Source: a virus. From it: a stretch of 64,000 nt of DNA. The stretch spans positions 1 to 64,000 of the IMG/VR virus record IMGVR_UViG_3300025705_000005; one strand, 5' to 3'. A model generated the notes under the pieces. That model searched no databases. It worked only from the letters and a program-made list of their open reading frames with translations, and was not told the DNA's origin. Made by a program: the position numbers and the translations under genes. Of the stretch, positions 20,153-41,400 are shown piece by piece; the first letter of the stretch is position 1; each line of letters starts with the position of its first letter.

Positions 20153-20162
20153 ATTATTTCCC

Positions 20163-20780
20163 TTAGATTGAACAAACACCATCTATTTCACAGATGATAT
20201 CTCTTACCAATGTATTAATTTTTTTATATGAAGGTTTTTTACCCTTACTTACTACTGATTCATTTACAGGTCTCATAAATGCACCATGTGTTGATGGGTT
20301 TGAAACAAAATCCCAACAAATTAAATCAAAATCATCTTCTACAGTTACAGTTTTACCATTACTAGCTTCTTTTACAGAACCCATACCTCTTGAAGAGATA
20401 CCAACAGTACAACCTGCCTCTAAAAGTTCTTTGAGGATGTTGCCTGCTGGAGTTTTAAGTACTTCTACCTTACCCATTACATCATCACCCTTCCAATATA
20501 CTTCTCTGATGATATGTGAAGTATTTTTTAGTTCAACTACAGAAGATTCAGGATGGTCTAACTCACCAAATGCTCTATTTTCTTTAATTTCTCTACCTTT
20601 GTACTTTTCCACTTCTCTTTCTAAGATTGAACGTGGATAAACTCTACCATTTTGGTTTTCAGCTTCAGCTCTTTGTAGCACACCATTAACAATCAACCTA
20701 CCATTGTTATCTTCCAATGATTCATTGATTTGCCTCTTAGTTAGAGTAAAAGGAATTGTATCTATAAGTAATCTACCCAT
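20163..20780 (-). CDS. 21: Prohead core protease, T4 gp21-like (205 aa)
   Basis: Serine protease that matures the prohead by cutting scaffold and capsid proteins after [hydrophobic]-x-Glu. The catalytic region shows FGELDHPESS with H76 and CTVGISSRGMGS with the candidate nucleophile at S129 or S130, followed by DLICWDFVSNPSTHGAFM. This matches the phage U9/S80-type prohead protease pattern. Sites INES (residues 18-21) and VNES (172-175) near each end suggest self-processing. The length is close to T4 gp21 (212 aa). The ATG at 20780 overlaps the stop of the 44-aa gene (TAATG), with GGGGAG as ribosome binding site; an in-frame GTG at 20792 is less likely. It lies next to its probable substrates. 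Confidence 0.92.
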   Translation of the reverse strand: MGRLLIDTIPFTLTKRQINESLEDNNGRLIVNGVLQRAEAENQNGRVYPRSILEREVEKYKGREIKENRAFGELDHPESSVVELKNTSHIIREVYWKGDDVMGKVEVLKTPAGNILKELLEAGCTVGISSRGMGSVKEASNGKTVTVEDDFDLICWDFVSNPSTHGAFMRPVNESVVSKGKKPSYKKINTLVRDIICEIDGVCSI

Positions 20781-20914
20781 TATGCTCCCCACACTTTTCG
20801 TTTTCTATATAAATCAAACATGATTTGTGCTACTTCATATCTTATAAGTAGACGAATATTCTCCAAATCCTTATTTGAAAGTTCTTCTTTTAATATTTTC
20901 TTTTTTAAACTCAT
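20780..20914 (-). CDS. Very small coupled gene between gp20 and gp21 (44 aa)
   Basis: The product begins MSLKKKILKEELSNKDLENI and ends RKRKVWGA. It is helical and highly charged with no membrane segment. Its ATG overlaps the stop of the 162-aa gene (ATGA), and its stop overlaps the gp21 start (TAATG), so it is tightly coupled on both sides, which strongly supports real translation. In T4 the small core proteins gp67 and gp68 occupy this position. No sequence similarity to them can be claimed by eye, but a small basic core or protease-coupling protein fits. Confidence 0.72.
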   Translation of the reverse strand: MSLKKKILKEELSNKDLENIRLLIRYEVAQIMFDLYRKRKVWGA

Positions 20915-22304: not shown

Positions 22305-24182
22305 TTAAGAATCCAATATGTTTTTTTCATCTAATAATGGTGATGGTGTCTCATTTGTATCAGTTTTTAAAGATTCACGCAACATTTCCTTTGTTTTTAC
22401 TTTAGATTTCATACGTGATACTATCCCTGTAATTTGTTCTTGATTGATAACTGAAGTAGCATTGTATCGTTCATTCTTAGATAAAGATTTGTTACCTAAT
22501 GGGTCTCTACCAAATGGATTTTCATCCGTACCATAGTTACCACCTTCTTTAGGTCTACCTGCTCCATCAAATCCACCTTCTGGCGCCCCACCTTTGTTTT
22601 CACCAAATGGGTCGTTTCCACTATCACCACCACCTTCATCACCACCTTGTTGTAATGTTGCTAAATCATGTGGAGTACCAAATGATTCACCAGTCTTAAC
22701 CGGGTCATTACCTTCTGATTCAATTTGTTCATGTCTGAATCCTAATTTTAAATCATTGATAACTTTGAATTGCTCTTCTTTCCACTCATCTTCACTCATA
22801 TTGAATATATTCTTATAAACCCAATCTTGCGATACCATTTTTAAATCTTTTATATCGCTAGCCAATGAAATCTTTTCAGACCAAAGGTTTGCTTTCTCTT
22901 GCTCATATATAATAGATGGATTGGTAAGTTCTAATTCGAAGTTTACTAATTGGTCATCTGTATATCCTTGCGAATATAAATGTACAATTGCAATCTTAGT
23001 TAATTCTGAAAGTACAATCTTTTGGATTCTTTCTACAGAACGTGCAAATCTAATATCTTCTTGTGCTAATGTAGCTTTTCCTTCTACACCTTCTTCATAC
23101 CCAATAAATGCTTTCGGAACTTTAAGTGCAGCTAACATTCTGTTTCTTAGGTATTCAATATCATCAATACCACCAAACTCCATTCCACTTAGGGAATCAA
23201 TCTCAGTACCACTCTGCCCACCTCTTACAGGTAGATAGTAATCTTCCATCATATTCTGCATATTGAATTTAAGATTGTAATCACCAGTAGTTTCATCGAT
23301 ATAAGGAACTTTTTTCATCTGGTCTATAATAGATGCCATATATGTATCTACTTCTGCAGGTGGAATGTTTCCAATATCAATTTTAAAGATTCTCTTTTCA
23401 GGTGCTCTCATAATTCTATGAATCATCATAGCATCTTCCATAAGAGTTAATTGTTTCCAAGTCTTTCTTGCACCTTCTAATAGTGAACGGCCATAAGGAA
23501 GGAAGTTTGTATCTGTTAATAATCTAAAGTGAGCCACCTGAAACGATTCTAAGAACTTAGTATTGTTTCTTTGTGAAATGGCGTTTGTATTTTGTTCTTC
23601 TACTTCAAATCTTACTGAGTAAGGATTATCTAAATCATATCCTTCTTCTCTACGAGTTTCATAACAAGATAATGGTTGTGCATTTACAACACCTAACTCA
23701 TCATCAATATCTAAGTAAAGATAATAATCACCATATTTGTTCATACCTCTAACCCAAGACCAAAGATTGAACTCAATGTTCAATACATCGTAGAATAAGT
23801 TATGTAATGTTTTCTTTAATTTTTCATCATTAGATTTAATACGGATTACATCACCCATATCATTTTTTAACGTACATTCATCTGAGTATATATCTAAAAT
23901 AGATGAGATAATAGAATCCTTATCCATTGCCTCATAATCTGTATATAGTTCTAACTTATTTGAATGATAATTAAATCTTTCGTTGTATGTTTGCCAATTC
24001 TTTCTTGAGTTAGAACCATGCAATCTACCATACCTATCATAATACGCAGAACCTCTACGATTACCATCAGATTGTAGTCTTGATGAATCTACTACCTTTA
24101 ACTTATCTTTACCAACTCTTCTTACAACTACTTGAGTTGAGAATAATCTCTTTAATCTACCAAATAATGATGTATCTGCCAT
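22305..24182 (-). CDS. 20: Portal vertex protein, T4 gp20-like (625 aa)
   Basis: Dodecameric portal through which DNA is packaged. Residues about 35-470 match the T4-type portal: RRGSAYYDRYGRLHGSNSRK, YTDYEAMDKDSIISSILDIYSDECT, then RTWKQL-type helices and LMEDAMMIHRIMRAPEKRIF, a well conserved segment, followed by VPYIDETTGDYNLKFNMQNM. Compared with T4 gp20 (524 aa) it has a C-terminal extension of about 120 residues, Gly/Asn/Asp/Pro-rich (GGDEGGGDSGNDPFGENKGG) and then helical and basic. That tail carries LRES near the end, a possible protease site. Its promoter-like motif is exactly 31 nt upstream. There is no strong Shine-Dalgarno; the stretch before the ATG is A-rich. Confidence 0.94.
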   Translation of the reverse strand: MADTSLFGRLKRLFSTQVVVRRVGKDKLKVVDSSRLQSDGNRRGSAYYDRYGRLHGSNSRKNWQTYNERFNYHSNKLELYTDYEAMDKDSIISSILDIYSDECTLKNDMGDVIRIKSNDEKLKKTLHNLFYDVLNIEFNLWSWVRGMNKYGDYYLYLDIDDELGVVNAQPLSCYETRREEGYDLDNPYSVRFEVEEQNTNAISQRNNTKFLESFQVAHFRLLTDTNFLPYGRSLLEGARKTWKQLTLMEDAMMIHRIMRAPEKRIFKIDIGNIPPAEVDTYMASIIDQMKKVPYIDETTGDYNLKFNMQNMMEDYYLPVRGGQSGTEIDSLSGMEFGGIDDIEYLRNRMLAALKVPKAFIGYEEGVEGKATLAQEDIRFARSVERIQKIVLSELTKIAIVHLYSQGYTDDQLVNFELELTNPSIIYEQEKANLWSEKISLASDIKDLKMVSQDWVYKNIFNMSEDEWKEEQFKVINDLKLGFRHEQIESEGNDPVKTGESFGTPHDLATLQQGGDEGGGDSGNDPFGENKGGAPEGGFDGAGRPKEGGNYGTDENPFGRDPLGNKSLSKNERYNATSVINQEQITGIVSRMKSKVKTKEMLRESLKTDTNETPSPLLDEKNILDS

Positions 24183-24249: not shown

Positions 24250-25821
24250 TTATAGTAACCAACTTATATCTTCATCACCTTTACCAGTTTTAACCTTCCA
24301 AGAATCCGTTGCTTTACCTTGGTTTGTTTTAAAAACACCTGAGTGTTTGGTAGTATGGTTTAATGCCCTTCTAGTTAATTCAATTCCTTGCTGTCTAAGT
24401 TTAAGTGCGGTATCTCTTACCCATAACCCTGTACAAAATGATATTGTTAAATCATCATTATATCCAGATTGAGCTTCTGCTCTACTTCCATTCCATATAA
24501 AAGTAAAAAGTTCATCAATTAATCTTTTGGAACGGATGATTGGAACTCTTTCTCTCATATAAGTATCTAATTTTGATATAACTAATGGGCGTGTTCTACT
24601 AGTCATTGAAAACCCTGGAACCATTTGGGATTTATCTTTTAAATCATATCCCTTTTGTAAATGTATATCTTCATCTACATATCCAAATTCTTTAAAAGAA
24701 TAATATAGATTAGAATAATTTCTATCTATTGCTTCTTGAATAACTGCCCAACCAATATTAGCGTTTTCAATCACTAATAATGCATCGTTCCATTCGGTTG
24801 CAACGTTTACTAACATATTACCATAATCTTTAGTACCAATCTTACCTTTGTACTCAGCAACCTGCTCTACACTCTCTACATCAATGACGTGGAATGCTGA
24901 ATAATCTGCTCCATCACCTCTAGCGACATCGGCAACTACTACATAATCTTTAGTATAATTTGGTTGTGACCATAACCAATAGTTTCCATCGAACCCTCTT
25001 TTTTCAACTGGTTCTTGTACATGAGTTTCTTCATACCATTTTAGGAGCTGCCCATCTACAACTGTATAACCAGAACTGATAAAATCACAATCACATTCCT
25101 GTGCTGCCATCTTCTCACCTAATAGTTGAGTTTGTTCTACTCTCCAAGATTCATTTCTTTCAGGGTGTACAGTCCAATGAAGTTTGATTGGATTCCAACC
25201 ATCATTCTGTTCACCTTTTAACCAAGTTTTGTGAAAGAAGTTACCAACACCATTGGGAGTTGATAATACAATTGCCTTACCACCAGTTGAAAGAGTAGAT
25301 TGAGCGGATGCCCAAATCTCATCTACACTTTTAATAAATGCAGCTTCATCTATAATCAACATTGATAATGCTTCTGAACGACCTGCATCACCACTAGCTG
25401 ATGTTGCTTTGATTGTTGAACCATTTCGTAATCGTAAGGATAGTTTGTTATCTTCTTCAGTTTCACCTCTTAGCCAACTCGGTAAGTTCTCATGCATATA
25501 CCTAACCTTAGTAACTAAGTTTTTAGCTACCTCTTGTTTAGTTGCAATTACCAATATGTTTTTATCTTCGTGAAATAACATCATCCATAAAGAATAACCT
25601 GCGGATAATGTTGAGATACCTAACTGACGTGATTTAAGGATTACATTGTATCGGTGGTCGTTAAACTCACCCATAACATCTTCTTGGAAAGGATACAAAT
25701 CAAAAAGAATCTTACCTCTCTTTGGGTGTTGTATATAACAATACTTCTTAAAGAAGTAAACTGGGTCTGTAGCACATTTAACGTACTCTTCCCTAATAAG
25801 TTCTTTTATGTTCTTGCTCAT
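24250..25821 (-). CDS. 17: Terminase large subunit, T4 gp17-like (523 aa)
   Basis: Packaging motor with an N-terminal ATPase and a C-terminal RNase-H-fold nuclease. Residues 62-71 (LKSRQLGIST) are the Walker A equivalent; the usual GK[TS] lysine is replaced by Ile, and the lysine sits at K63 before SRQ, a deviant form seen in some terminases. Walker B is MLIIDEAAF, and the coupling motif is VLSTPNG. Nuclease acidic residues are in VVVADVARGDGADYSAF, LLVIENANIGW and NDDLTISF. It starts at ATG 25821, overlapping the upstream stop by ATGA. Its length is shorter than T4 gp17 (610 aa), mainly at the N-terminus. No small terminase is evident nearby. Confidence 0.95.
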   Translation of the reverse strand: MSKNIKELIREEYVKCATDPVYFFKKYCYIQHPKRGKILFDLYPFQEDVMGEFNDHRYNVILKSRQLGISTLSAGYSLWMMLFHEDKNILVIATKQEVAKNLVTKVRYMHENLPSWLRGETEEDNKLSLRLRNGSTIKATSASGDAGRSEALSMLIIDEAAFIKSVDEIWASAQSTLSTGGKAIVLSTPNGVGNFFHKTWLKGEQNDGWNPIKLHWTVHPERNESWRVEQTQLLGEKMAAQECDCDFISSGYTVVDGQLLKWYEETHVQEPVEKRGFDGNYWLWSQPNYTKDYVVVADVARGDGADYSAFHVIDVESVEQVAEYKGKIGTKDYGNMLVNVATEWNDALLVIENANIGWAVIQEAIDRNYSNLYYSFKEFGYVDEDIHLQKGYDLKDKSQMVPGFSMTSRTRPLVISKLDTYMRERVPIIRSKRLIDELFTFIWNGSRAEAQSGYNDDLTISFCTGLWVRDTALKLRQQGIELTRRALNHTTKHSGVFKTNQGKATDSWKVKTGKGDEDISWLL

Positions 25822-26417
25822 TTCTTTCCCAATTTCCAAAGAAACTGAGTAGATATGATTGGTTGGAATTGGTCATTTAATCCAATACCCAATCCAAATG
25901 CCTGCTTCTTCTTTGTTCTAAGTAATATAGAACCACCAACATAATTAAATTGCTTAGTTGTTCCATTCAAACCAAATCCTACATAGAATTCGTTTTTATT
26001 AATATACTTTGTTTCAGTTACAGTAGTTGTTGGGTAGATTAAATCGTAGATTATTTTTCTTGATAAAATTTTGTTCTGTGAGATAGTATCTTTAATTGTT
26101 AAATTCAATGAATCTAATTGTTGAAAGTCCTCATAAACATATTTTGCGAAGTAATCCTCTAAAATAGATAGAGTATCAATTTTCTGAGTTAACCTAATGG
26201 TATCAATCTCAGTTTTGATTCTGGTAACTATTTTAGGAACGTATTTTGTAACTTCTTTAGTAATGGTGTCGTATTTCGTTTCTACCTTTGTGATAATAGT
26301 AGGCTCGGATGGAGTATTATCTACTCCACCTGTACCACTGCATTGTCTTAGAAAAATTATTACTATAATTAATACTAAGATTATCAGATTCTTAAAATTT
26401 CCGATATACTTTTCCAT
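25818..26417 (-). CDS. Membrane-anchored coiled-coil protein, possible lysis or envelope factor (199 aa)
   Basis: An N-terminal hydrophobic helix (residues 10-24, LIILVLIIVIIFL) is followed by RQCSG with Cys26. Residues 40-150 are a Thr/Lys/Glu-rich extended or coiled-coil stretch with repeated D(T/S)I patterns (KYDTITKEVTKYVPKIVTRI). The last 60 residues alternate aromatic and polar positions (EFYVGFGLNGTTKQF, then FGLGIGLNDQFQP) and end in FLWKLGKK, suggestive of beta strands that insert into an outer membrane. This anchor-spacer-beta architecture could bridge the Gram-negative envelope like a spanin, but no spanin homology is visible. It is tightly coupled to the terminase gene (ATGA). Confidence 0.6.
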   Translation of the reverse strand: MEKYIGNFKNLIILVLIIVIIFLRQCSGTGGVDNTPSEPTIITKVETKYDTITKEVTKYVPKIVTRIKTEIDTIRLTQKIDTLSILEDYFAKYVYEDFQQLDSLNLTIKDTISQNKILSRKIIYDLIYPTTTVTETKYINKNEFYVGFGLNGTTKQFNYVGGSILLRTKKKQAFGLGIGLNDQFQPIISTQFLWKLGKK

Positions 26418-26822: not shown

Positions 26823-28607
26823 TTACCATTTTCTACAAGACCAATAGTTTGCTTTCCATTTTGGTCCAGGGTTATCACAATTCATTCTAGCTCTAAATGA
26901 TTTTCTAGCTTCTGGATTATCTTTTTTGATTACCATTCCTTTTTGCCCAAAGTGAACTACTACAACATTTCCTTTTTCGTTCTTAACATATACTTTGAAT
27001 TTTTTAGAATCACCTTGCATTGGTTTGTTAAGTTCTACTTTTCTACCTTGATACTCAGCCTCTTCAATTACTTCAGAAGTATTTTCTTTTTTCATAAGTT
27101 TGTAAGCCGTATGCCCCATCATTACGATACCACTCTTAACAAACTTATCTTTATTAGATTGTTTTTTAAGTGCATCATATACTTGAATCATTAGGTTTGC
27201 TGAATTCATATCAACTCTTACCTTCTTACCACTCTTAGTATCTTTAATCAAATCGTTTTGTGAATCTTTTACGATTTTTCTTAATTGAGTAATTACTTCA
27301 GGTTCTTTAGCTTCGTTGATTGATTCGTTTACACCTTTGAATCTTCTTTTAATATCGTTGTAAAATTTCTTATGATATTTTTTAGGAATATGGTCTGATT
27401 TTAAGTAATCATATAAATCTTGCTCATCACTCCACATTTGCCCTGCAGCTTCATGTTGTGTTGAACTATACCCAGCAGCGATATCTAACATAGTGTACAT
27501 ATCATTATGATTTAAACTTTCGTTTACCGATTCATTTATATCTTCAATGGTAGCTGCCATATTACCAATTGCCATAGTTACGTTTCCGTTTCTCTGATAT
27601 AAATAATACTTAACACCTTTTGGGTTTGTTACATTCTGAAGGATTATACGTTCTACTTTTTGTTTACCTACTAAAGTTTTACCCTTAGTTACTTTGAATT
27701 TTGCTTCATTACCACTACTCATTGATGAACCATACTTAATTGTAATCTCATCACCTTTTTTGAGTTTATCGTAAATCTTAAATCTGGCTTTCATATCCAT
27801 AGATTTACCTTCGGTTAATCCCTGTTGGTTGTTTATTTCATTTACTTTTTGTTCGATAGTATCAACGTGTGATTGAATATAAGAATGTTCTTGTTCCAAT
27901 CCCATTATTTTTGCCATCTTCATAATATTTTTTGCGATATTATTAGCAACCATTGAATAATCTCTCTCAGGGCTGTATCCTTCTCTCTGAATATGTTCTT
28001 CTATAAAGAAAAGTGCATCTTGTAATCTTACACTTCTTTCAGCCATATCCATATCAACACCTTTGGATTCTATATCACCATATAGTGATGATGCGCCAGG
28101 ACACATGTGGAAGTATTTAGTTTGGTATTCACCTATCTTAATTTCTTCTTTATCATTTTCATCTTCACCCATTGTACTCATATCTTCATACTCATGTGAG
28201 TGGGTTACTTCTTTAATATATTGAGTTACAAAGCTTCTAAAATTTTCATTCATTCCTTCTTTAAGAGAAGTTACTTTAGCACCTACGGGCCCACCAATAA
28301 ACATTGAAACAAAGAATGCTATCGCATCAATGATATCATACCCATCCCATTTTGCTGCCTTAGCGATTGGTTCACCATGATTCTGTTCGATTGAATCTTC
28401 CAAATCTTTTCTACCAGCATATTTGGATTGTTTTGCTTTAGGAAACATTGAATCCACTTTCTTAGCCTCACTATGAAAGTTTGCATCTCTTAGTGCTCCT
28501 ATTAGAATGTGTTTTACTCCATGATGTACTTCTGGGTCTGAACCTTTGTACCCTTTGAAGTATGCATCTAAGTCTTTTTTAACTTTTTTATTTAATCTTG
28601 GATTCAT
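26823..28607 (-). CDS. Modular, polyprotein-like virion protein (594 aa)
   Basis: Several small domains are joined by protease-like linkers. Residues 1-110 form an N-terminal domain (NPRLNKKVKKDLDAYFKGYK, then DAIAFFVSMFIGGPVGAKV, partly hydrophobic). The linker SLKEGMNENFRSFVTQYIKE follows. Later linkers are GLTEGK, INESVNES and VNESINEA. The C-terminal about 70 residues (YQGRKVELNKPMQGDSKKF, then KSFRARMNCDNPGPKWKANY, ending WSCRKW) are a conserved phage domain I know from marine T4-like head proteins, with two Cys near the end. The general architecture matches the 745-aa core protein at 17915-20152. It lies upstream of the membrane pair and downstream of the 194-aa gene (2-nt gap). Packaging in the head is inferred. 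Confidence 0.7.
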   Translation of the reverse strand: MNPRLNKKVKKDLDAYFKGYKGSDPEVHHGVKHILIGALRDANFHSEAKKVDSMFPKAKQSKYAGRKDLEDSIEQNHGEPIAKAAKWDGYDIIDAIAFFVSMFIGGPVGAKVTSLKEGMNENFRSFVTQYIKEVTHSHEYEDMSTMGEDENDKEEIKIGEYQTKYFHMCPGASSLYGDIESKGVDMDMAERSVRLQDALFFIEEHIQREGYSPERDYSMVANNIAKNIMKMAKIMGLEQEHSYIQSHVDTIEQKVNEINNQQGLTEGKSMDMKARFKIYDKLKKGDEITIKYGSSMSSGNEAKFKVTKGKTLVGKQKVERIILQNVTNPKGVKYYLYQRNGNVTMAIGNMAATIEDINESVNESLNHNDMYTMLDIAAGYSSTQHEAAGQMWSDEQDLYDYLKSDHIPKKYHKKFYNDIKRRFKGVNESINEAKEPEVITQLRKIVKDSQNDLIKDTKSGKKVRVDMNSANLMIQVYDALKKQSNKDKFVKSGIVMMGHTAYKLMKKENTSEVIEEAEYQGRKVELNKPMQGDSKKFKVYVKNEKGNVVVVHFGQKGMVIKKDNPEARKSFRARMNCDNPGPKWKANYWSCRKW

Positions 28608-28609
28608 TT

Positions 28610-29194
28610 TTATGCTCCGTTATTTTTTAGCTTATCTATAAAGTTTTCTTTAAAGGTTTTAAATTCGTTATCAATTTTTTCTACCACTTCTTCTTCTGTC
28701 ATTCCTTCATTCCATTTTTCAATAGAACCATCTTCATTTATAAAAGATGCTTGAAGAGTTGATTTAATAACTTCCTTTTCCATCTCAGCTTGTTTTAACC
28801 AAGCTTCGGCGTTTGCTAGTAACTTTTTCTTTTCATACTCTTCGTACTTACCATCTAATTTTAATTGATGTTCCATTTCTACAACACAATTTAAACACAT
28901 ACCATGTATAGCTTTCATTTTTAAATCAGCTCTACTTGGTTCTGTAGTAGTACAAGTTTCTTTGTTGCAATTAGGAAATGAATTTAACTCTTCTCTGAGT
29001 TTAGCCATTTTCCCAATCTTAACTTTGTAACCATTTCGTTGTTCCCACTTTTGATTTTTATCATCAATCCAAGTTTCTCCAACTTCACGTCTTTCAACGA
29101 CTTTATCAGCAAATGAGATGCTTTTTTTAGTTTGGGTTTTGTGTTGCCCACTTAACATTTCACTTACTGCTTTAATATTTTTTAACTTTGCCAT
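28610..29194 (-). CDS. Conserved protein with a probable zinc-binding site (194 aa)
   Basis: Residues 1-70 are basic and include ERREVGETWIDDKNQKWEQR, a short beta-rich motif. Residues 75-110 hold NCNKETC and then MCLNCVVEME, spaced like a four-Cys zinc ribbon. The C-terminal 80 residues are helical and acidic (EEYEKKKLLANAEAWLKQAE, then TEEEVVEKIDNEFKTFKENF). The family name is not known to me, although proteins of this type recur in T4-like phages. The gene begins 14 nt after a promoter-like motif and is followed at once by the 594-aa gene. Nucleic-acid or protein binding is a possibility. Confidence 0.7.
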   Translation of the reverse strand: MAKLKNIKAVSEMLSGQHKTQTKKSISFADKVVERREVGETWIDDKNQKWEQRNGYKVKIGKMAKLREELNSFPNCNKETCTTTEPSRADLKMKAIHGMCLNCVVEMEHQLKLDGKYEEYEKKKLLANAEAWLKQAEMEKEVIKSTLQASFINEDGSIEKWNEGMTEEEVVEKIDNEFKTFKENFIDKLKNNGA

Positions 29195-29230: not shown

Positions 29231-31528
29231 TTAAGAGTAAAATAACCCTAAAATCTGATTTAGTGATGCGAATGTACCTGTTAATTTGTATGTTCCACCT
29301 TTATATGTGAATACAATACCCTCATTTGGTACAATCTTATCCTTACCACCTACAGCGGCTAATCTTTCTAATTCCATTTTTAATTTTGCAATCTTCTTTG
29401 GGTCTCCACTCTTCTGAACATCTTTGATTGTGGAATCCAATCTCTTCTTCATATCTCTAACTGCCTTATCAGGGTTAACTGTTAATGCTGAACCCATAAA
29501 TGAAAGTACATCTGCACCTACACCTAAGAATATATCTTCGAACTTACGAAGGTTTGTTTTAGATATTTTTGCTTTATCCTGTTTATCAGTTTTGGTTGCC
29601 CAATCTAATACTTTAGAATCAGAAATATTCTTTTTGTTTAATCTAAATGAGTTATCATAGAATGCCCATCTTTTAACCAACGCCATTTTAGTTTTGTTAT
29701 CTAATGTAGATGGTGAATTTTTATCAACATATTGTTCCCACCATGCTTGATGGTAATCTGCAACACCATTAGAATCTTTTAGTTTAAATTCTTTTTGAAC
29801 TTTGTTTAATTGTGAGTAGTACTTACCTTGTAACTTAGAAAGTTCTACCGATTGTGGTAGATTTACAACAGGTGGTCCTTGAATTGTATAATTCTTTTGA
29901 ACATCCTGATTGATTTGTTTAATCATACCAGCTAATATTCTAGCAGATGAAGTATCAGCTCCAATTGCTTTTCCATTCTCATCATAATCCATTGTTCCGT
30001 GGAATACTAAAAGTGGTTGTCCATAAGGAATCACATTTACTGATGTTGGGAATATAACTTCTATATTCATAAAGGATGAACCTTGATTGAATACTTTATC
30101 TCTTTGTGCTTTTGATAATCCTTTGATTGCTTTAGATAAATCTTCCATAGCGAAATTGTATGCATCGGTTAATCCACCTCTACCTTGAAACTTAGAAGCT
30201 ACTCCACTAATATCCAATGCGTTTTCACCACTATTCTTTAGGTGTCCACCATTACGAGCGGCGATTAATCCTTTATCATCTCTCCAACTAATAGCAAGTG
30301 CTTGTCCATCTGTTTTTTCTCTAGTGAATTCTAACTTACCATTTAAAGCGTTTGATATGATTGTTTTTAAATCACCAAACGTTAGATTCATCTCTGTATC
30401 AAATGGGTGAGCCATATGTCCGTATGCTCCACCTTCAGTAATCAATCCTTCTTTTACTATATTTTCTGGTGAAGTTTCTTTTTTAGGTTCATTCTTAGAA
30501 CTATCTTTTGATTTTTCAGCTCCTAAGAAATCAACAAGTTCATAACCTACCATAGTAGCTACTGTTGTTATCTTATCTGCCCATGCTTTGTAAGCATCAG
30601 TTCCTTTTAAATCAGTATATCTTTGAGATTGTGCATCTAATCCTGCAAGACCTGATGGGAAGTATGATACTGGGTATTTATCTTCAATATTTCTATTATC
30701 ATCAGCGTATATAGTTTCATCATCGGTATCTAATATATAATCAACTACCAACCATCCTAATCTTTTTGCTGTTTCATCACCAACTGCTTTATATGATTTT
30801 GAGTTACCATAATATGCGCCTGGCCCATCATCAACACCTTGTGAGTTACCACCAACACCTACTTTGGTAGAATTGGCTTCTGATAATAATTTATTAAAAT
30901 CAAATGTAGATAAAAAAGATTCCATCTGCTTTGATATCTTACTTAGTTTACCTGTTATGAATTTGAATATCTTTGGATTAAACTTTCCATCGTATGCTTT
31001 TTTGAAACCAGCCTTTTTTGAATCATCACTACCTAATGATAATAACTTTCTAACTTCAGTTCCACTAATACCACCACTTTGAGCTGGTGCTACATAAACA
31101 TATCCTTTATCTTCATATCCTTTTTCAATTCTATCAGGATGGTATGGTTCAAAGTATTTACCTTTTAATCTGTATCTATCCTTTTCACCAACTACAGTTA
31201 CAAATGCTGTTTTAGATGAATCAAACTTACCTATAATTTCTTTTGGGGCGTATGGGTTTTTGATTTGAACAATTTTAGATGATGGAATGCCAAACATCTT
31301 TGTCATAATCATTTTCTTTTCATTAAACTTAAATGGTGATTTGATATTATCTGTTTTATTAGATGTACCAATCCACACATTATCTCTACCAAATTGTTTT
31401 ACCAAATGTTCGTAGGTAGCATTATGCCCTTTATGAAAGGGTTGAAATCTACCAGCGTAAACTACTACCTTTTTTTCTATATTCTCAGTTAAGATTTCCT
31501 TAACCCATTCTTTAATTAATTTTCCCAT
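29231..31528 (-). CDS. Nucleotidyltransferase-ligase-like fusion protein (765 aa)
   Basis: Two enzyme-like domains in one chain. Residues about 20-185 form a cytidylyltransferase/NMNAT-type Rossmann domain: GRFQPFHKGH (26-35) carries the HxGH motif, and SGGISGTEVRKLL carries the ISGTxxR motif. Residues about 365-765 resemble the covalent nucleotidyltransferase fold of DNA/RNA ligases: EKTDGQALAISW has KxDG with K405 (motif I), NIEVIFP near residue 490 fits motif IIIa, EGIVF at 736-740 fits motif IV, and YKLTG at 747-751 is a partial motif V lacking the second lysine. A helical linker lies between. The N-terminus KLIKEWVKEILTEN carries an ILTE protease-like site. The substrates cannot be read off. 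NAD metabolism, RNA repair or capping are possibilities. Confidence 0.82.
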   Translation of the reverse strand: MGKLIKEWVKEILTENIEKKVVVYAGRFQPFHKGHNATYEHLVKQFGRDNVWIGTSNKTDNIKSPFKFNEKKMIMTKMFGIPSSKIVQIKNPYAPKEIIGKFDSSKTAFVTVVGEKDRYRLKGKYFEPYHPDRIEKGYEDKGYVYVAPAQSGGISGTEVRKLLSLGSDDSKKAGFKKAYDGKFNPKIFKFITGKLSKISKQMESFLSTFDFNKLLSEANSTKVGVGGNSQGVDDGPGAYYGNSKSYKAVGDETAKRLGWLVVDYILDTDDETIYADDNRNIEDKYPVSYFPSGLAGLDAQSQRYTDLKGTDAYKAWADKITTVATMVGYELVDFLGAEKSKDSSKNEPKKETSPENIVKEGLITEGGAYGHMAHPFDTEMNLTFGDLKTIISNALNGKLEFTREKTDGQALAISWRDDKGLIAARNGGHLKNSGENALDISGVASKFQGRGGLTDAYNFAMEDLSKAIKGLSKAQRDKVFNQGSSFMNIEVIFPTSVNVIPYGQPLLVFHGTMDYDENGKAIGADTSSARILAGMIKQINQDVQKNYTIQGPPVVNLPQSVELSKLQGKYYSQLNKVQKEFKLKDSNGVADYHQAWWEQYVDKNSPSTLDNKTKMALVKRWAFYDNSFRLNKKNISDSKVLDWATKTDKQDKAKISKTNLRKFEDIFLGVGADVLSFMGSALTVNPDKAVRDMKKRLDSTIKDVQKSGDPKKIAKLKMELERLAAVGGKDKIVPNEGIVFTYKGGTYKLTGTFASLNQILGLFYS

Positions 31529-32448: not shown

Positions 32449-35400
32449 TCAATTTTGCACCAGTCCCTGTCCACTACGAGTAGTCAGAGTGTATGTTTGT
32501 AATAGTAACCCAAAGCTTGAGTAGCCCGATGTAATTGCACCATCATCAAATTGTATCCCATCATCTTGAATAGATAATTCTAATCTAGCAATATCATCTG
32601 ACCCAGCGTTTGTTGGGAATAATATATCATTTATTACATATGGTGGTGCTACCTGTAATGTTAAATTCATTGTTACACTTCCACCCAAAGAACCATCTAA
32701 AACTAATGTAGTGTGGCCACTAACTGTTTGATAATAAGAACCTGAATTTGCACTATTAACATTTACAAACTTTTCAACAATATTAGTTGCGGTTACGAAT
32801 CCTTCTTTAGTTACTTCAAAACCAGGACTTACAAAACCACCTAATTTCATAGAACCACTATCTAAACTTATAACTGAACCCTCATTAGGTGATAGGTTAA
32901 GTGATTGTAGTTCACCAGTCTTAATTTGCCTTCCACCAATTTGTGTTCCAAGGTTTGTTTTTGGTTTTATTACTAAATCTCTAACATACGCAGAGTTAAG
33001 TCCATTCCCAGACCAATTTAATATATTCATTGAAAAGAATTCAGTCCCTGCTGATGGGGTGTAATTCGTTTGATATGTAATCCATTCTTGTGGCCAATAA
33101 GAACCATTTAAGTTATTACTTACATTACCTACACCAGCTGAACCTGATATTTTTGTCCAACTTAAAGTAGCTTCACCACTAGTACTAAGGGAACCTGGTT
33201 CTGAATTACTGCTGTTGGCATATGAAGCATGGGTTATAAATTTTACACCATCTTCTCGTGCACTTGCATCATTAGATTCATACACTCTTAGATACATACC
33301 TGTTGTACCTGATGTATAGTTGGTAGCACCACCTTTAACAGTTATTGTTATTCTATATGCAGATGCTTCCTTTTTTATAATTTTGGTTGCCATTCCAATA
33401 GTAGTATCCCCAGGGTTGGATAATTCTACAACTTTACCAATAGTACCCCCGAAATCACTAAATTTTATATTACTTGCGACATTATTCCCATATGTTGAAA
33501 AGAAATCTGCAGGTCTACCATCCAATGCGCTAATACCAGCCGATGGGTTTGTTATTTCGTTAAATAGATTTTCTACAGCTTCAGCAGGGTCACCAAGTGT
33601 AATTGCATTCCCATCCGCATCCAAAACAGAGATAGCTCCAGTTACTTGTACTGCCCCACCACTATCTATTTCGAAATTAGGAGTACTGATTTCTAATTTA
33701 CCAGCAGTATGATTAAATCTCATGTAATTACCACCAAGTTCACCAACTGCGAATTTAGCATTTGGTCCATCTAATAATATACCTTTTTCTGTAGTGTATG
33801 CCCCAGTACCACCAATTTTCATTACACCATCATTAAGATATAACGCAGTACCTGTATCGGTTGATAAGTTGTTTGATTTTATAGTACCTGTTGTAATTGA
33901 ATCACCACTAATTCTACTTGTACCACCAGAACTAAATTCTTTTATTTTTATATAATCAACATGCGTTATACCCTGCGTATCATTGTAGTTCAATAATAGA
34001 TATGCTGATATGAATCCATTATTGATTTCAGCTCTCAACGTTCCAGGATTAGTTTTATCATCGTGCATCGTAGTATCACCATTTGAACCACCTGTTCTTG
34101 TTGCTCCTTTGAAATAACCTTTGAATGTTTGGAAATACCCAGTACCATTACCAGTACCTAAATTATTAGATGATAGAGTAATATAATGACCTGAAGTATT
34201 ATTATTCCCATCATAACCAACTCTAGTTACACCATCTGATTGCATTCCGTTTATACCAACATATGCTCTTGTATTAGATGTACCAGCCGTTCTTTTGATT
34301 CTAACTTCTACCTCATATAATGATGATTCATTAAATGGTATCAATGTATTAGAAATTATATTTGCTTCATCATCACCACTATTGTTTCCTACAACAAGCG
34401 CTTTACCTGAAATACAATCCGTATCTGCCTCTAATGATGGAGTAGAACTACTCGCCCCTTTGTTCCAAAACCAAGCATCACCTGTCCCATCCATCTTTGG
34501 AGCATTACCACCATTTGTATCACCTACAGCTGAGTATTGTGAGAAATCATCAAAGAATACTACATTACCATCTCCGTTATCAGGTCTACCTCTAAAGGTT
34601 ACATCACCTGCGATTTCTACGTTTCCATTCGAACCACTAATATATTGTGAAGTTCCACTTCCTAATAAGAACTTATCTACTTCTATATTTGCGTTTGAAC
34701 CACTAATTAATAATGATTTATTAGTATTGTTCCATGCTAAGTAACCATCGCTTGGATTACTTGCTCCACTAGCATTTCCACCTAAGTAAAAATTACCACC
34801 ACTATCTAAGAATGATGTGAAATCTGCTAATGTTGCGGTTGTTCCACTACCAATTGCCCCATGATATCCAAATACATCTGAGTTCATTAGTAAACCTGCT
34901 GCTAACGTACCTTGTACTCCACTTAATGATGCATCTAAGAATGAGAAGTCTTGATTGTTTGCTCCTTGGTCTCCCTGCGGTCCAGCTTTAGATTTAGCTA
35001 TTGAGTAAGTTTTAGATATTGAAACACCACCACTAACAGCTGTAAGTATTACAGAACCACTATCGGGTGTTAATGCTGAAATTGTTAGTACTCTGTTACT
35101 GATTGTTGCAGTGAGGTCTGTTGAGTTTTGGTTTGTTACAGTATAATTAGATGATACGTTTGTTACACCTTCATATATAAACATTTCAGTACCACTACCA
35201 TTAAATGATGAAACAGTTCCATCATTAGCAGCTGGAACTACATCAGCTTCAGATGTTAGGAATGCCGTTACTGCATCTACCCCACCAGCACCAGCTGCGC
35301 CAGGTTGAACTGCTACAATTGTAACTGTATCAAATGTTAATTCAGTTGTTGAATCAGCTGCTTCAGATACACTAACTGTAATTGTTTTTGGAGTTGAGAA

Positions 35401-38400
35401 ATATGATGATGGAATTGTGAAGTTTTTTGTATCACCATTTGCTGATACTCCATTTGTATATGTAAGTTCATCTGTTATACCATCGCCTGTAAATTTAAAG
35501 TACCCATCTGTAAAGTTTTGTGAATTTGCTGATAATGTAATTGTACCACTTGGTGAAGGGTTTAACCCATCTGCATCATATGTTACAACATTAGTTGCCG
35601 CAGTTAATGATACAGTTTTAGAACCAGACCCGGCTGCTCCTGGAGCTCCATCAGTACCTGCTCTAGATTTAACTAATGACATTGTTTTATCAATCTTTAC
35701 AACCCCAGTTGATAAATTACCACTACCATCTTTTACTTCTTTAATTTCAATATAATCTAATCTAACTACTCCGTTGTTGGTAGGGTGACTAGCTATAAAC
35801 ATTGGTGATATATAAGTTGCGTTTGTATGGATAGTTTTTGGATTATTAATATCAGGAGATTCACCACTATTAGTTGCACTTGATGCACCATGACCTGAGA
35901 AATATCCTCTCTTAGTTACCCAATCTGTACCTTCGTTTTCACCAAATGAAAACCCAGCTGCAGCTATATAATGTTGACTACTAAAAGTATTGCTACCAAC
36001 TACGTTACGTTTTGTGCTTTCATTACTCCAACCATTTACACCAACATAAACTGTTCCAGTACCAGAAACTCTTTTAAACCTAGCTTCAATATAATAAGTT
36101 TTAGTATCATCATAAGCAAATATATCTTTACCTGCTATCCAAACCCTATCATTATCAGCATTATTACCAAATTCAACATAGTTGTTTCTTAATTCACCAT
36201 CACCTGAACCAATACTTATAGTATCAGGATTATCAACTAAGTGCCAATCGTTATCAGTTCCATTAATATCACCAGCACCCCCAACAAGAAATTGTGAGGT
36301 AGCCCAATCTTCACCAGTTCTACTTCCCCAACCACTATGATGGATACCACCACTAATTGCAGTGATTATTACAGAACCACTATCGTGATTCATATTTGTA
36401 ACATTTAAGGATGATGAATTAAATGAGTTAAAATCGTTATCAACAGTAATGCCTGTATTGGATACTCCATTGATAAAGTAGTTTGTTGTTTTATCTGTTA
36501 CACCTTCAAAAATTGTAACATCAGTTTCTGCTCCTACATATGATGGAACTAAACCATCAGCACCTGCTGCTAATGTGTGTGATTCGTTACCTACTATAAC
36601 AGTAATAGCATCAGTACCCGATGTACCATCTGCTCCACCATCTAAGGCGAATATTTTAAATGAATCACTTAAAGATCCTGATGTTACTGTTATCGTTATT
36701 GGGTATTTAGCTTTAGGAGATGGTGAGTTTGTATTAAATACTAAACTACCACTTATTACTCCACTATTATTTGGTAATGAAGTAGGGGCAAATGTAGGTA
36801 CATTATGACTACCACCAACTGCATCTATAATTGTTATATCAGATGCCGTTAAAGTTTTTCCTAAATTTTGTTGAGTAATAAATAACTCAATTGTTGTATC
36901 ATCAGGTGTTGTTGCTGATGCTGATGCAAACGCAAATACTTGTGAATCACCAGTTAATGATATTAAGGATGCTGATGTTCCTGGCGCTCCATCTGAACCA
37001 TCATCTCCTTGCAGTGCTTGTGATATAGACATCAATTTAGTTAATACAACTGAACCTGATGTTGCTGTAATTTCAACTGAACCACTAAATGGAGTTGTTG
37101 AATTTGTTATTGTTACAGTATCACCACTAGTCGTTGTTGTAATATGAGATGAAATTGAACCAGTGTTTATAGTATAATCATTGGTTACATTTGATGTACC
37201 TTGAAATACTAAAATATCTGTACTTGCTCCTGCGAATGATATTACATCACCTGATGAACTTACAGGAAGTGTATGTGAATCGTTAGTTAATAATGCCGTT
37301 ATTGCTGATACACCTGATGTACCATCTGAACCACCCTCAACTTTAAATATTTTTACTGCGTCTTGAAGTGAATCTTTTGTTGCTGATATGGTTAGTGGGA
37401 ATTTTGATTTATCACTACCCATACCACCAGCATTTGTATTCCCTGCAAATGATACTGAACCACTTACTATACCCGTACCACTAACAGCGTCTGTATTATC
37501 AAATGTAAAGTTTGTAATATTACCACCACCATTCATTTGTATTGTAACATCACTTGCTGAAATAGGTGCTACTAAATTCTGTTGTTGAAAACTAAATTCT
37601 ATAGAAGATGGAGTTGCTGATGTATCTATAACATCATCGAATGCCATAACCTGTGAATCTAAACTACCAATAAGTAATTTAGCAGATGTTCCATCTGAAC
37701 CATCAGGCCCTTGTTTGGATTTAACCAAACTCATTATTTTATCTATACTTACACTACCACTTGAAGCGTTTATATTAACATAAGCGCTATCAGCTGTCAT
37801 CGTTGATATGGTAACTGTGTTTCCACTATCCGATGCACTTACCCCAGCACCATTAGATGATGATATAACATAATTAGAAGTTACATTTGTGATTCCTTCA
37901 AATACTTCCATATCCGTAGAACCACCCGCAAATACTGCAATTGAGCCAGATGAATCAGCTGCGAATGTATGTGATTCGTTTGTAAGGAAAGCAATTACTG
38001 CATCCGTTCCATCTACTCCATCTCCACCACCATCAATTTTAAATATTTTTAAACTATCTTCTAATCCATCTTTAGATACTTCAATCGTAATCGGTAACTT
38101 ACTTTTGGTGGATGAAAGAGTTGTATTGAATGTTATACTACCACTAACTTGACCTGTTCCATCTGTTACACTTGCAACAAATGCTGGGTCTGCTAAGGTG
38201 TTTCCACCTGAATCTTTTATTGTTATATCACCAGCATCTATAGTACCACTTAAATTTTGTTGGTTAACAATAATCAATACATCATTATCTATTGGTGTAT
38301 TAGATGATGCTGATGGGAATGAGAATACTTGTGAATCTGATGATAGTGATAACAACTTAGCAGCTGCTCCTGGTAAACCAGCAGTACCCTGCTTTGATTT

Positions 38401-41400
38401 AGAAAGTGTCATCGTTTTAGATAATGATACCGATTCACTAACTGCTGTTATAATAACCGAACCACTATCGTGTGCCATCGATGTGATTGTTACAGTGTTA
38501 CCACTTATAGATGAACTTACAGATGTTGTTGAATCTTTACTAAAAGTATATTCTGAATTCTTATTTGTAGTCCCTTCGAACACTTCCATATCAGTAACTG
38601 CTCCAACGAATGATACTACAGTTCCATCATTTTGTGAAGGTAACGTATGAGATTCATTGGTTAGGAATGTAGTTACTGCATCCACACCACCTACCCCATC
38701 ACTACCACCTTCTACTTTAAATATTGTTACGGAATCCGTTAGAGTATCATTTGTACAAGATATGGTTAATGGTAAACTAGTCTTAGCTCCATTTAAACCA
38801 CCACTACTAAATCCACCTGTATATGAAACGCTACCACTTACTATACCACTTTTTTGGTTTGTGGGCCCACCTACACTATTATTGTTGAATGAGAAGTTTG
38901 TAACATTATTACTATCTGCGGTGGTGATTGTTATATCACTACTTACAATAACATCATTTAAGTTTTGTTGAGAAAATGAGAAGTTAATTGTACCTGGCGT
39001 TGCTGAGTTATCTGTTGAATCATCAAATGCGAATATCTGAGAATCTACACTTCCTATTAATGTTTTTGCGTTATCACCACTTACACCCGGAGTTCCATCC
39101 TGGCCATCATCACCTTGTCTAGTAATACCAATCGACATTATTTTTGATAATGATACCGATTCACTAACTGCGGTTATTGTAACTGAACCACTATATGGTG
39201 ATGTGGTATTTGTTATCGTAAACGCATTTGATGATGAAGTTACCGTTATATATGCTGCTGAACTTTCTGTAAATGAATAGTTTGATGTTTTATCTGTAAT
39301 ACCCTCAAATACTTTCATTTGAGTGTCAGCTCCTGCATATGATTGAATTGCGCCTGAACTACTCAATGGTAGTGTGTGTGATTCATTTGTTAAAAATGCC
39401 GTTACTGCATCTACACCAGCAGCACCATCCGAACCAGGTTGTAATCCAAATAATGTTAAACTATCAGTTGATGCGGCTGTTCCACCAGAAGAACCTGTAA
39501 ATGCTCTTACTTCATATGTTTTAGGAGTAGATGAAGTTGGTTTCTCCAATGCAGTATTAACAGTGAATGTGTTTGTTGTACTTCTACTTCCTTGAATGGT
39601 AGCATCTTTATAAAATTCATAATACACATCACCTATAAAGTTTTGTGGTGTTGCGGTTAGTGTTATTGTTTGACCAGATGGTGCTTCATCTCCAAACTCA
39701 TCAAATGTTACTACATATTTATCAGCTGATAGTTCTACTGTTCGTGCTATAGAACCACTTGATACATTATCAATTGCCGTTTCAACGGATGTTCCATCTG
39801 CGAAGTTTAACTGCCCAGTGATTGATAATGTAGATGTTGATGGATTCCAAGATAGTTTATTACCTAATGAGAATTGAGAACCTGAATCTACATAGAACCC
39901 AGTATTAGCATTATTATAAGCCCCATGTATTCCAGTAAATAATTTACCATCAGCCATACTAATTCCACCGATAGAACCTGTTTTTGCAATTATACCACCT
40001 TGAAGGAATACATTATCGGTTGCTAATCCAAACCCTGGATTTGAATTACCAAACACATAATCTGAATTTGCCAATCCACTTAAATCACCTAATCTTACTT
40101 TTAACGCTACATCGTATAATCCACTACCTGTTCTTTCAACAACATCCATATATGGTGTATTCACATCATTTGGATTTGCGTTCATTTTGATATAACCAGT
40201 ATTTAATTTACCAGTCGAAACAATAACTTGCCCATCTTCGTATGATTGAGCTGCTGAACCTAAATCACCAACGAATTCACCTTGAGAACCACTTCCGTAT
40301 GCTCTCTGTACCATTATTCTACCATAGGTTTCATCTTCATTCGAACCATCACTATCTATTGATGCTGAATTTAATAAAACATATTCTGTTTGGAAACCTG
40401 TATTATCTACTTTCTTTATAAGGAGTATTTCACCTTGAGAGAATCCACTAGCGTTCTTTACAGACATCGTAGTTTCTGTGTCTGTTAACGAACCAGTAAT
40501 TGTTGTTGAGTTAGCTACCCATAATTGTCCACCAACTGCGTTTACAGATTCTTTTTCAAAAGTTGTTGTTCTTAACGTACCTCTAATTCTTACGTTTTCA
40601 AATTCTGCAGTTCCATTTCCTTCAGATGAAATCTTCCACCCTTTTAATCCACTTGCGAAATCTCTAGTTTGTAAGATACCTTCAGGTTTCATTATAAGGT
40701 TTCCACCTTCTATAGAACCCGTTGTAATACCCCAACCACCAATCGATGCTGATACGAATCTTGCGAAACCATCTGCTTTGATAGATGAGGATGAGTTTGT
40801 TTCAGTAGATGCTGCGCCATTTATTAATGCTGGTGTTTTTATATTTTCTACAGTTAAATCTGATAGAATTGTTGCGTTCGCTCCAATTATTAAACTACCT
40901 TCTCCACTATTTGCTTTAGGGTCTAAGTGAAATATAGATGAACTAATTTCAATATTACCATCCGAACCACTTATGTATTGTTCGGTTAGATTACCAATAA
41001 AGAACTTATCAGTTTTAACATCTAAAATACCACCATTTGCTGTTGAGAATACAAGGTGTCTGTCATCGTTATCTCCAACGAACTGCATACCAACACCTAA
41101 TAGCTGGTCTTCACCAAATACAAGATTACCCGAACCACTATAGATTACGAATCCACCTGGTGCTTTTCCTAATGATGCTGAAGTTATACCTCTGTATCCA
41201 ACGGAACGCATGAATCCACTACTAGAACCACCAATTTCAATACCAGTTCCTAATGTATTGGATATAAAAATAGAACCACTAATTAAGTTCTCTTCACCAC
41301 CAATGTAAACTTGCTCACCATCAAATACAAATGGCTCTGATATTGTTTCAGTTCTTGATATACTACCCTCAGCGTTTAAATATAATAACTTTAGTATCTT

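What the first reader, a model, noticed from the sequence alone, without database searches (positions are those of the whole stretch)
29231..31528. NMNAT/cytidylyltransferase-type domain fused to a KxDG ligase-type nucleotidyltransferase domain, inside the virion module
One 765-aa chain carries GRFQPFHKGH and ISGTEVR motifs of nucleotide-transferring Rossmann enzymes and, after a linker, EKTDG (K405), NIEVIFP, EGIVF and YKL, which line up with ligase motifs I, IIIa, IV and a partial V. A protein that could both make a dinucleotide such as NAD and handle a lysine-linked nucleotide suggests RNA or DNA end modification (repair, capping, NAD-linked chemistry). Its position among virion genes and its ILTE protease-like N-terminal site hint that it may be packaged and injected. 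The motifs are read from the sequence; the function is inference. Relatives probably exist in other marine phages but I know of no assigned activity.
Basis: partly seen in the sequence, partly recalled or inferred. Interest (0 to 1): 0.85.

Follow-up and report, generated by a model that had tools for sequence, protein, structure and literature searches.

The report
Head-packaged phage enzyme polyprotein with ligase
A marine T4-like virus of bacteria appears to carry an NMNAT-type enzyme and a new RNA-ligase-like enzyme as one precursor chain that its own head protease would cut apart inside the virus particle, probably so that an RNA-repair kit is injected with the viral DNA.

Summary
The 765-aa minus-strand ORF at 29231-31528 has an NMNAT/cytidylyltransferase-type N-domain and, after a linker, a 400-aa C-domain with KxDG at K405. 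The C-domain has no Pfam, PHROGs or NCBIfam family above threshold but many phage relatives (133 and 406 stretches in two IMG/VR scans, possibly overlapping). K405, D407, G408, R425, E490, E736, G737 and K748 are identical in 169 of 169. Its AlphaFold model (pLDDT 89) has only RNA ligases, DNA ligases and capping enzymes as its first 39 PDB matches, fungal tRNA ligase first. Profile alignment puts K405 on T4 Rnl1 K99.

In relatives the linker grows from 140 to 1,400 aa and takes up CCA-adding, P-loop kinase and HD modules, again separated by such sites. Elsewhere these modules are separate genes.

Best reading: a capsid-targeted, prohead-protease-processed enzyme polyprotein. Fold and catalytic residues about 0.9 likely, packaging and cleavage 0.8, RNA-end (probably tRNA) repair 0.5. 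NAD-linked chemistry is possible, less supported. Cleavage, substrate and activity are untested.

The parts
31484..31528 (-). Residues 1-15, MGKLIKEWVKEILTE: capsid-targeting-type N-terminal helix ending in an L/I-x-E prohead-protease site (cut expected after E15)
   Evidence: E15 invariant in 26/26; helix 2-13 then low confidence in the model; LxE-type N-termini in 42 of 64 distinct family members vs 124 of 512 other ORFs
30929..31474 (-). Residues 19-200: NMNAT/cytidylyltransferase-type (HxGH) domain
   Evidence: Pfam CTP_transf_like E 2.7e-7; PDB NMNAT sequence hits; Foldseek NMNAT hits
31424..31453 (-). GRFQPFHKGH motif, residues 26-35
   Evidence: 54 of 93 distinct relatives keep HxGH, 39 have GxHH instead
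31049..31069 (-). ISGTEVR motif, residues 154-160
   Evidence: S155, G156, T157, R160 invariant in 26/26
30872..30889 (-). Junction site 2, LLSE|A after residue 217
   Evidence: LxE site in this junction in 25/26 full-length relatives; low model confidence from 217 on
30473..30877 (-). Residues 218-352: poorly conserved middle module, fold not identified
   Evidence: weak conservation; mostly low pLDDT; found in 115 family members and no other protein of the loci
30428..30445 (-). Junction site 3, LITE|GG after residue 365
   Evidence: E365 in 117 of 169, M in 50; LxE site in the junction in 25/26; disordered in both models
29234..30433 (-). Residues 366-765: new RNA-ligase-like covalent nucleotidyltransferase domain, last element of the chain
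   Evidence: AlphaFold pLDDT 89; Foldseek PDB and BFVD; profile alignment to T4 Rnl1
30305..30319 (-). Motif I EKTDG, residues 404-408, predicted nucleotidylated lysine K405
   Evidence: E404, K405, D407, G408 169/169; aligned to T4 Rnl1 K99
30047..30067 (-). Motif III-type NIEVIFP, residues 488-494, E490
   Evidence: E490 169/169; aligned to NFEFVAP of T4 Rnl1
29339..29971 (-). Residues 520-730: about 210-residue mostly helical insert between motif III and motif IV, characteristic of this family
   Evidence: secondary structure of the model
29309..29323 (-). Motif IV EGIVF, residues 736-740
   Evidence: E736, G737 169/169
29276..29290 (-). Motif V-like YKLTG, residues 747-751, K748 (single lysine instead of KxK)
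   Evidence: K748, T750, G751 169/169
20163..20792 (-). T4 gp21-type head maturation protease, the expected processing enzyme
   Evidence: phrog_207 E 2e-53
28610..29194 (-). Neighbour gene, 194 aa with a cysteine cluster; homologue in 100 of 178 relative loci, median offset 40 bases downstream
24250..25839 (-). Terminase large subunit; homologue near the gene in 148 of 178 relative loci

Best explanation
The gene encodes a capsid-targeted enzyme polyprotein. Its N-terminal helix (residues 1-15) takes the chain into the prohead core. The phage's gp21-type protease then cuts after E15, E217 and E365, freeing an NMNAT-type HxGH nucleotidyltransferase, a small middle piece and a new RNA-ligase-like covalent nucleotidyltransferase. 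The pieces are injected with the DNA. There the C-domain would bind a nucleotide on K405 and join or modify RNA ends, most likely of tRNAs cut by defence nucleases, with helper enzymes that relatives carry on the same chain or in the next gene (CCA-adding enzyme, P-loop kinase, HD domain). Shown here: domain identity, invariant catalytic-type residues, site placement, and modular fused or split architectures. Inferred: actual cleavage, packaging, injection, RNA as substrate, tRNA repair as purpose. Separate likelihoods: ligase-superfamily domain 0.9; packaged and processed 0.8; RNA-end repair 0.5.
For: Fold: the first 39 PDB matches of the model are all RNA ligases, DNA ligases or capping enzymes, led by fungal tRNA ligase, prob 0.95; the viral library gives RNA ligases after phage cytidyltransferase-like and unnamed phage proteins. 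Sequence: profile alignment to 37 Rnl1 sequences, P 8e-4, puts K405 on K99 and NIEVIFP..NVIPY on NFEFVAPTNRIVLAY; unrelated profiles give 0.08-0.53. All catalytic-type residues 169/169. Processing: [LIVM]xE[AGSNDT] sites 6.2 per 100 residues at the N-terminus and two junctions vs 0.12 elsewhere in 26 relatives; over 91 members 1.64 outside vs 0.12 inside recognised domains (13-fold), control motifs 0.5-2.2-fold; in longer members sites fall between further modules, e.g. HD|CCA at 618 in L043. T4 gp21 cuts after L/I-x-E and CTSs are short N-terminal propeptides (PMC9026906). gp21-type protease present; gene sits beside terminase/portal in most loci. Junctions are low-confidence in the models. 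RNA theme: CCA-adding/polyA-polymerase head in L041, L050, L051, L089, L097, P-loop kinase in L147, L157, L159, L097, HD in L097; the same modules as neighbouring genes in L154, L145/L166, and stand-alone C-domain next to a separate N-domain gene in L081/L096 and L095.
Against: No proteomics or assay for this family. The Foldseek PDB E-values are weak (best 5e-3) and TM-scores low, probably because of the helical insert. The hhalign P-value is for one chosen pair. Motif V has one lysine, not KxK. In 50 of 169 relatives the residue before GG is M, not E, so the last cut may lie a few residues upstream there. The window's own protein has no kinase, CCA or HD module, and the middle piece is unexplained. 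Relatedness of sequences inflates the apparent significance of site enrichment. The role of the NMNAT-type domain in RNA repair is not explained.
Confidence: 0.5

Rival explanations
1. NAD-linked chemistry: the N-domain makes NAD from NMN to counter NAD-depleting defence, and the C-domain uses NAD (as bacterial DNA ligases do) or works on NAD-capped RNA; packaged together for speed.
For: The N-domain's nearest PDB and NCBIfam relatives are NMN adenylyltransferases of the NadM type, with HxGH and SGTEVR intact. P-loop kinases occur fused to NMNAT in NadR (PMC9503650), and some relatives have a kinase before the N-domain. One stand-alone C-domain touches LigA weakly, E 0.055.
Against: All NCBIfam NMNAT models score far below their cut-offs. 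39 of 93 distinct relatives have GxHH instead of HxGH. NadV, reported to accompany every phage NadM (PMC9503650), is absent from 14 of 16 records, among them the 190-kb Mel-JY01 genome. The CCA-adding modules are not explained.
Confidence: 0.2
2. Unprocessed assembly or DNA-maintenance protein: an enzyme acting late in the infected cell (nick sealing before packaging, or tail/head assembly as T4 Rnl1 does for tail fibres), not injected; the LxE motifs serve only to remove it from the core.
For: Late, virion-gene location; T4 RnlA is annotated as both RNA ligase and tail fibre attachment catalyst.
Against: Sites at the domain junctions and their depletion inside domains preserve intact enzymes after cutting, which a discarded core protein would not need; strict conservation of catalytic-type residues.
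Confidence: 0.15
3. RNA or DNA 5'-end capping: the C-domain is a guanylyl- or adenylyltransferase that caps RNA ends, the N-domain supplies a dinucleotide.
For: Capping enzymes share the fold and appear among the structural matches; single-lysine motif V.
Against: RNA ligases rank above capping enzymes; the sequence alignment is to Rnl1; no OB-fold domain follows motif V, the chain ends 17 residues after K748; repair-type companion modules.
Confidence: 0.08
4. Injected protein-modifying effector: the ligase fold has been turned to nucleotidylate host proteins, in the way that T4 Alt is a packaged protein-modifying enzyme.
For: T4-like phages may use the targeting sequence to load diverse proteins (PMC9026906); the large helical insert could bind a partner.
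Against: Companion CCA-adding modules act on RNA, not on proteins; full ligase-type catalytic set retained.
Confidence: 0.07

Closest known systems
T4 RNA ligase 1 (Rnl1, RNA_lig_T4_1, PF09511) and tRNA ligase Trl1 adenylyltransferase domain
   Same: Covalent nucleotidyltransferase fold; motif I KxDG and motif III align in register with Rnl1; Trl1 is the best PDB match.
   Different: Not recognised by Pfam; a ~210-residue helical insert between motifs III and IV; motif V has one lysine; no C-terminal domain after motif V; encoded at the end of a putative packaged polyprotein.
T4 internal head proteins IPI/II/III and Alt (capsid targeting sequence, gp21 processing)
   Same: Short N-terminal helix ending in L/I-x-E, gp21-type protease in the genome, gene in the virion module.
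   Different: Here the chain carries several enzymes separated by further L/I-x-E sites, not one protein with a propeptide.
Polyvalent proteins (PMC5512222)
   Same: Multidomain phage proteins predicted to be injected, with variable domain content.
   Different: Those are described with embedded peptidases, and the passages searched do not report this ligase family, NMNAT fusions or prohead-protease sites at the junctions; here release would be by the head protease.
NadM-type NMN adenylyltransferases (bifunctional NMNAT/Nudix)
   Same: GRFQPFHKGH and SGTEVR, Rossmann-type nucleotidyltransferase domain.
   Different: No Nudix domain; below all NCBIfam equivalog cut-offs; active-site variant GxHH in many relatives.
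Cyanophage cytidyltransferase plus DUF6267 (PF19782) gene pair, e.g. S-RSM4 SRSM4_063/064
   Same: Adjacent overlapping genes for a CTP_transf-type protein and a KWDG-containing 400-aa protein.
   Different: DUF6267 shows no significant profile similarity to the C-domain (P 0.16); relation is a lead only.

Membership tests
Covalent nucleotidyltransferase superfamily (RNA/DNA ligases, capping enzymes) | Motif I KxDG with invariant lysine | tested here: met
   K405, D407, G408 169/169
Covalent nucleotidyltransferase superfamily (RNA/DNA ligases, capping enzymes) | Conserved acidic residues of motifs III and IV, in order | tested here: met
   E490 and E736-G737 169/169
Covalent nucleotidyltransferase superfamily (RNA/DNA ligases, capping enzymes) | Fold of the adenylyltransferase domain | tested here: met
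   Foldseek: first 39 PDB hits all of this superfamily, best E 5e-3, prob 0.95; low TM, probably because of the insert; model pLDDT 89
Covalent nucleotidyltransferase superfamily (RNA/DNA ligases, capping enzymes) | Motif V with two lysines (KxK), as in most ligases and capping enzymes | tested here: not met
   K748-L-T: only one lysine, invariant; this lowers the claim to a divergent member of the fold, not to a canonical ligase
Covalent nucleotidyltransferase superfamily (RNA/DNA ligases, capping enzymes) | Covalent lysyl-NMP intermediate and end-joining activity | not testable with these tools
   needs biochemistry
T4 RNA ligase 1 family (PF09511) / RNA_ligase (PF09414) | Match to the family profile above cut-off | tested here: not met
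   no RNA-ligase Pfam hit among 35 members; one relative touches PF09414 at E 0.008, below cut-off; profile-profile P 8e-4 to Rnl1
NMN adenylyltransferase (NadM/arch NMNAT) | HxGH and (I)SGTxxR motifs in a Rossmann-type domain | tested here: met
   residues 26-35 and 154-160; Pfam CTP_transf_like above cut-off; Foldseek
NMN adenylyltransferase (NadM/arch NMNAT) | Equivalog-level match | tested here: not met
   all NCBIfam NMNAT models far below cut-off, best 33 of 397 bits
NMN adenylyltransferase (NadM/arch NMNAT) | NMN adenylyltransferase activity | not testable with these tools
   needs assay
Capsid-targeted, gp21-processed internal head protein | N-terminal targeting helix ending in L/I-x-E | tested here: met
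   residues 1-15; E15 26/26; enrichment vs other ORFs
Capsid-targeted, gp21-processed internal head protein | gp21-type protease in the genome | tested here: met
   phrog_207 E 2e-53
Capsid-targeted, gp21-processed internal head protein | Presence in virions and cleavage shown | not testable with these tools
   a cytidylyltransferase (ORF154) was found in S-CREM2 virions (PMC10665884), but its homology to this family was not tested
Polyvalent proteins | Multiple functional domains with shuffling between relatives | tested here: met
   architectures
Polyvalent proteins | Characteristic polyvalent domains or embedded peptidase | tested here: inconclusive
   none recognised in the window protein; a weak DUF6782 metallopeptidase match in one relative, E 0.059

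The most novel reading that the evidence does not exclude
T4-like phages of the sea and of lakes carry a complete RNA-end-repair set (P-loop kinase, HD phosphohydrolase, CCA-adding enzyme, NMNAT-type nucleotidyltransferase and a new ligase) as one capsid polyprotein that the head protease cuts into separate enzymes inside the particle, so that repair of nuclease-damaged tRNA can start when the DNA enters. This would be a DNA-phage counterpart of RNA-virus polyproteins and would add RNA ligase to the injected anti-defence proteins.
Probability: 0.35. Interest if true: 0.9.

Novelty: new variant of a known kind. Interest (0 to 1): 0.74.

Why it matters
RNA ligases of phages are known as enzymes made during infection; a version packaged in the head would act before any phage gene is expressed, when host nucleases strike. 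A cargo polyprotein cut by the head protease would also be a general route for loading several enzymes with one targeting signal, which is useful for understanding what T4-like virions inject. The family is widespread in aquatic viromes yet absent from the family libraries searched, so one biochemical test would annotate many genes at once.

Tried and rejected
Sub-threshold Pfam/PHROG/PDB hits of the C-domain (UPF0257, DUF4419, eS6, transaldolase) were rejected as mutually inconsistent. DUF6267 as a sequence homologue: no significant profile alignment (P 0.16), although the best local match does fall on the EG..K region; kept only as a lead. hmmsearch with the family profile on S-RSM4 and S-CAM7 cytidyltransferase neighbourhoods found nothing convincing. 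The middle module (218-352) could not be assigned; weakly conserved and low confidence. Whether the N-domain transfers CMP or AMP cannot be told from sequence; NMNAT-like is favoured by PDB, NCBIfam and Foldseek. The idea that site enrichment merely reflects Glu-rich linkers was tested with control motifs and rejected. Some automatic architecture strings mis-order the ligase module because of spurious partial hits; one search uses only the best C-terminal hit. Active-site geometry could not be measured because coordinates are not exposed. The MAG hits are probably phage contigs; one Firmicutes MAG contig has the same length and a 100% identical match as an IMG/VR record.

Full report
Observation. 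It lies in a run of minus-strand virion genes of a T4-like myovirus: major capsid protein 14342-15976 and gp21-type protease 20163-20792, portal 22305-24182 and terminase 24250-25839. The record is a 74,485-base virus record with one copy.

N-domain. Residues 23-161 match CTP_transf_like above cut-off. PDB sequence hits are NMN adenylyltransferases, and with the full-length model Foldseek returns NMNAT, NadD and PPAT enzymes, NadM-type first, prob 1.00. NCBIfam NMNAT equivalogs score far below cut-off, so the fold is clear and the substrate is not. Among 93 distinct relatives 54 keep HxGH and 39 have GxHH.

C-domain. No Pfam, PHROGs or PDB sequence family is met. Scans of IMG/VR gave 133 relatives of the window protein and 406 of a more distant member (the sets may overlap), plus Mel-JY01 and two huge uncultured phages and contigs from other sources at 24-27% identity. 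K405, D407, G408, R425, E490, E736, G737 and K748 are 169/169. The AlphaFold model has pLDDT 89. Its first 39 PDB matches are all RNA ligases, DNA ligases or capping enzymes: fungal tRNA ligase, archaeal RNA ligase, T4 Rnl1, Naegleria ligase, T4 Rnl2, AsfvLIG; E-values are modest, 5e-3 to 0.5. In BFVD it finds phage cytidyltransferase-like and unnamed phage proteins, then RNA ligases. Profile alignment with 37 Rnl1 sequences has P 8e-4 with K405 on K99 and the NIEVIFP..NVIPY stretch on NFEFVAPTNRIVLAY; unrelated profiles give 0.08-0.53. The family differs by a ~210-residue helical insert between motifs III and IV, a single lysine in motif V, and no domain after motif V.

Polyprotein evidence. 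T4 gp21 cuts after L/I-x-E and short N-terminal targeting sequences carry proteins into the core (PMC9026906). With the pattern [LIM]xE[AGSN] the window protein has three sites only: ILTE|N, LLSE|A and LITE|G. In 26 full-length relatives [LIVM]xE[AGSNDT] occurs 6.2 times per 100 residues at the N-terminus and the two junctions and 0.12 elsewhere; the same pattern with D, K, Q, N, S or T instead of E is not enriched there. Over 91 non-redundant members it is 1.64 outside and 0.12 inside recognised domains, 13-fold, while controls give 0.5 to 2.2. In the long members sites fall between modules: L043 at 454 (before HD), 618 (between HD and CCA), 973/978 (before the ligase); L089 at 375, 1321, 1499; L159 at 73, 706, 1136. 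The N-terminus is a predicted helix, and junctions are low-confidence. Sequences are related, so the counts are not independent, and 50 of 169 have M instead of E before the GG.

Modularity. The part before the C-domain ranges from about 10 to about 1,600 residues. Modules found are CCA-adding/polyA-polymerase head (L041, L050, L051, L089, L097), P-loop kinase of the AAA_33/zeta type (L147, L157, L159, L097; weak similarity of one to seryl-tRNA(Sec) kinase), HD domain (L097) and DUF5661. L097 holds kinase, CCA, HD, NMNAT-type and ligase modules in one chain. The same parts occur as separate genes: N-domain protein next to a stand-alone ligase domain (L081/L096, L095, and further off in L087, L091-L093), kinase gene directly before (L145, L166), CCA-HD gene directly after (L154). 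This pattern suggests that the pieces work in one pathway without needing to be one enzyme.

Context. A terminase homologue lies in 148 of 178 loci, median 1.3 kb downstream, portal in 106, and the 194-aa neighbour in 100, median 40 bases downstream.

Function. RNA repair in phages combines kinases, phosphoesterases, nucleotide-restoring transferases and ATP-grasp-type ligases (PMC7824862, PMC9503650). The module set here matches that list, so RNA-end, probably tRNA, repair is the best-supported function. The NAD reading is weakened by the lack of NadV in 14 of 16 records, although those are partly fragments. A canonical T4-type Rnl1 is also present in two of the 16 records, so the new domain is not simply a replacement. 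A cytidylyltransferase has been detected in S-CREM2 virions, with the authors' caution about carry-over (PMC10665884); its relation to this family is untested.

Verdict. The added finding is that the chain looks like a protease-processed, packaged set of enzymes rather than a fused bifunctional enzyme. Novelty lies in the new ligase-like family and in the polyprotein design; the papers found discuss polyvalent proteins with embedded peptidases and head-protease propeptides, and a full-text search for polyprotein plus prohead protease plus phage gave only four papers, none titled for such a thing. Not shown: cleavage, packaging, substrate and activity.

Noticed in passing
17915-20182 (-): A 755-aa protein beside the protease has 19 [LIVM]xE[AGSNDT] sites against 3 and 6 for the D and K controls, so it may be a heavily cut core protein or a second polyprotein.
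   Followed up: partly
26823-28607 (-): A 594-aa protein with LxE sites at 117, 121, 266, 359, 432 and 516 and a C-terminal phrog_7595 domain of unknown function; another candidate packaged chain, though its D and K control counts are similar.
   Followed up: partly
28610-29194 (-): A 194-aa protein with a cysteine cluster (CNKETC...CLNC) and no known family; close downstream of the ligase-like gene in 100 of 178 loci.
   Followed up: partly
42541-45711 (-): One 1056-aa ORF holds a calcineurin-type phosphoesterase and an SbcC-type ATPase, i.e. T4 gp47 and gp46 functions in a single chain, inside the virion module.
   Followed up: no
32449-42486 (-): A 3345-aa protein with repeated SVxITAxSxSVSLSK-like and collagen-like GxxG units, probably a tail fibre type protein.
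   Followed up: no
L190 (virus record G001, which also holds L016; about 79.5 kb): A separate 1139-aa ORF with a polyA-polymerase head domain elsewhere in the same virus record, possibly a second enzyme polyprotein.
   Followed up: no
L180:2802-4558: In cyanophage S-RSM4 a DUF6267 gene with a KWDG motif overlaps a cytidyltransferase gene by ten bases; DUF6267 may be another ligase-like family paired with an NMNAT-type protein.
   Followed up: partly
N-domains of relatives, e.g. L072, L169: 39 of 93 distinct N-domains carry GxHH in place of the HxGH signature, which suggests a changed substrate or mechanism.
   Followed up: partly
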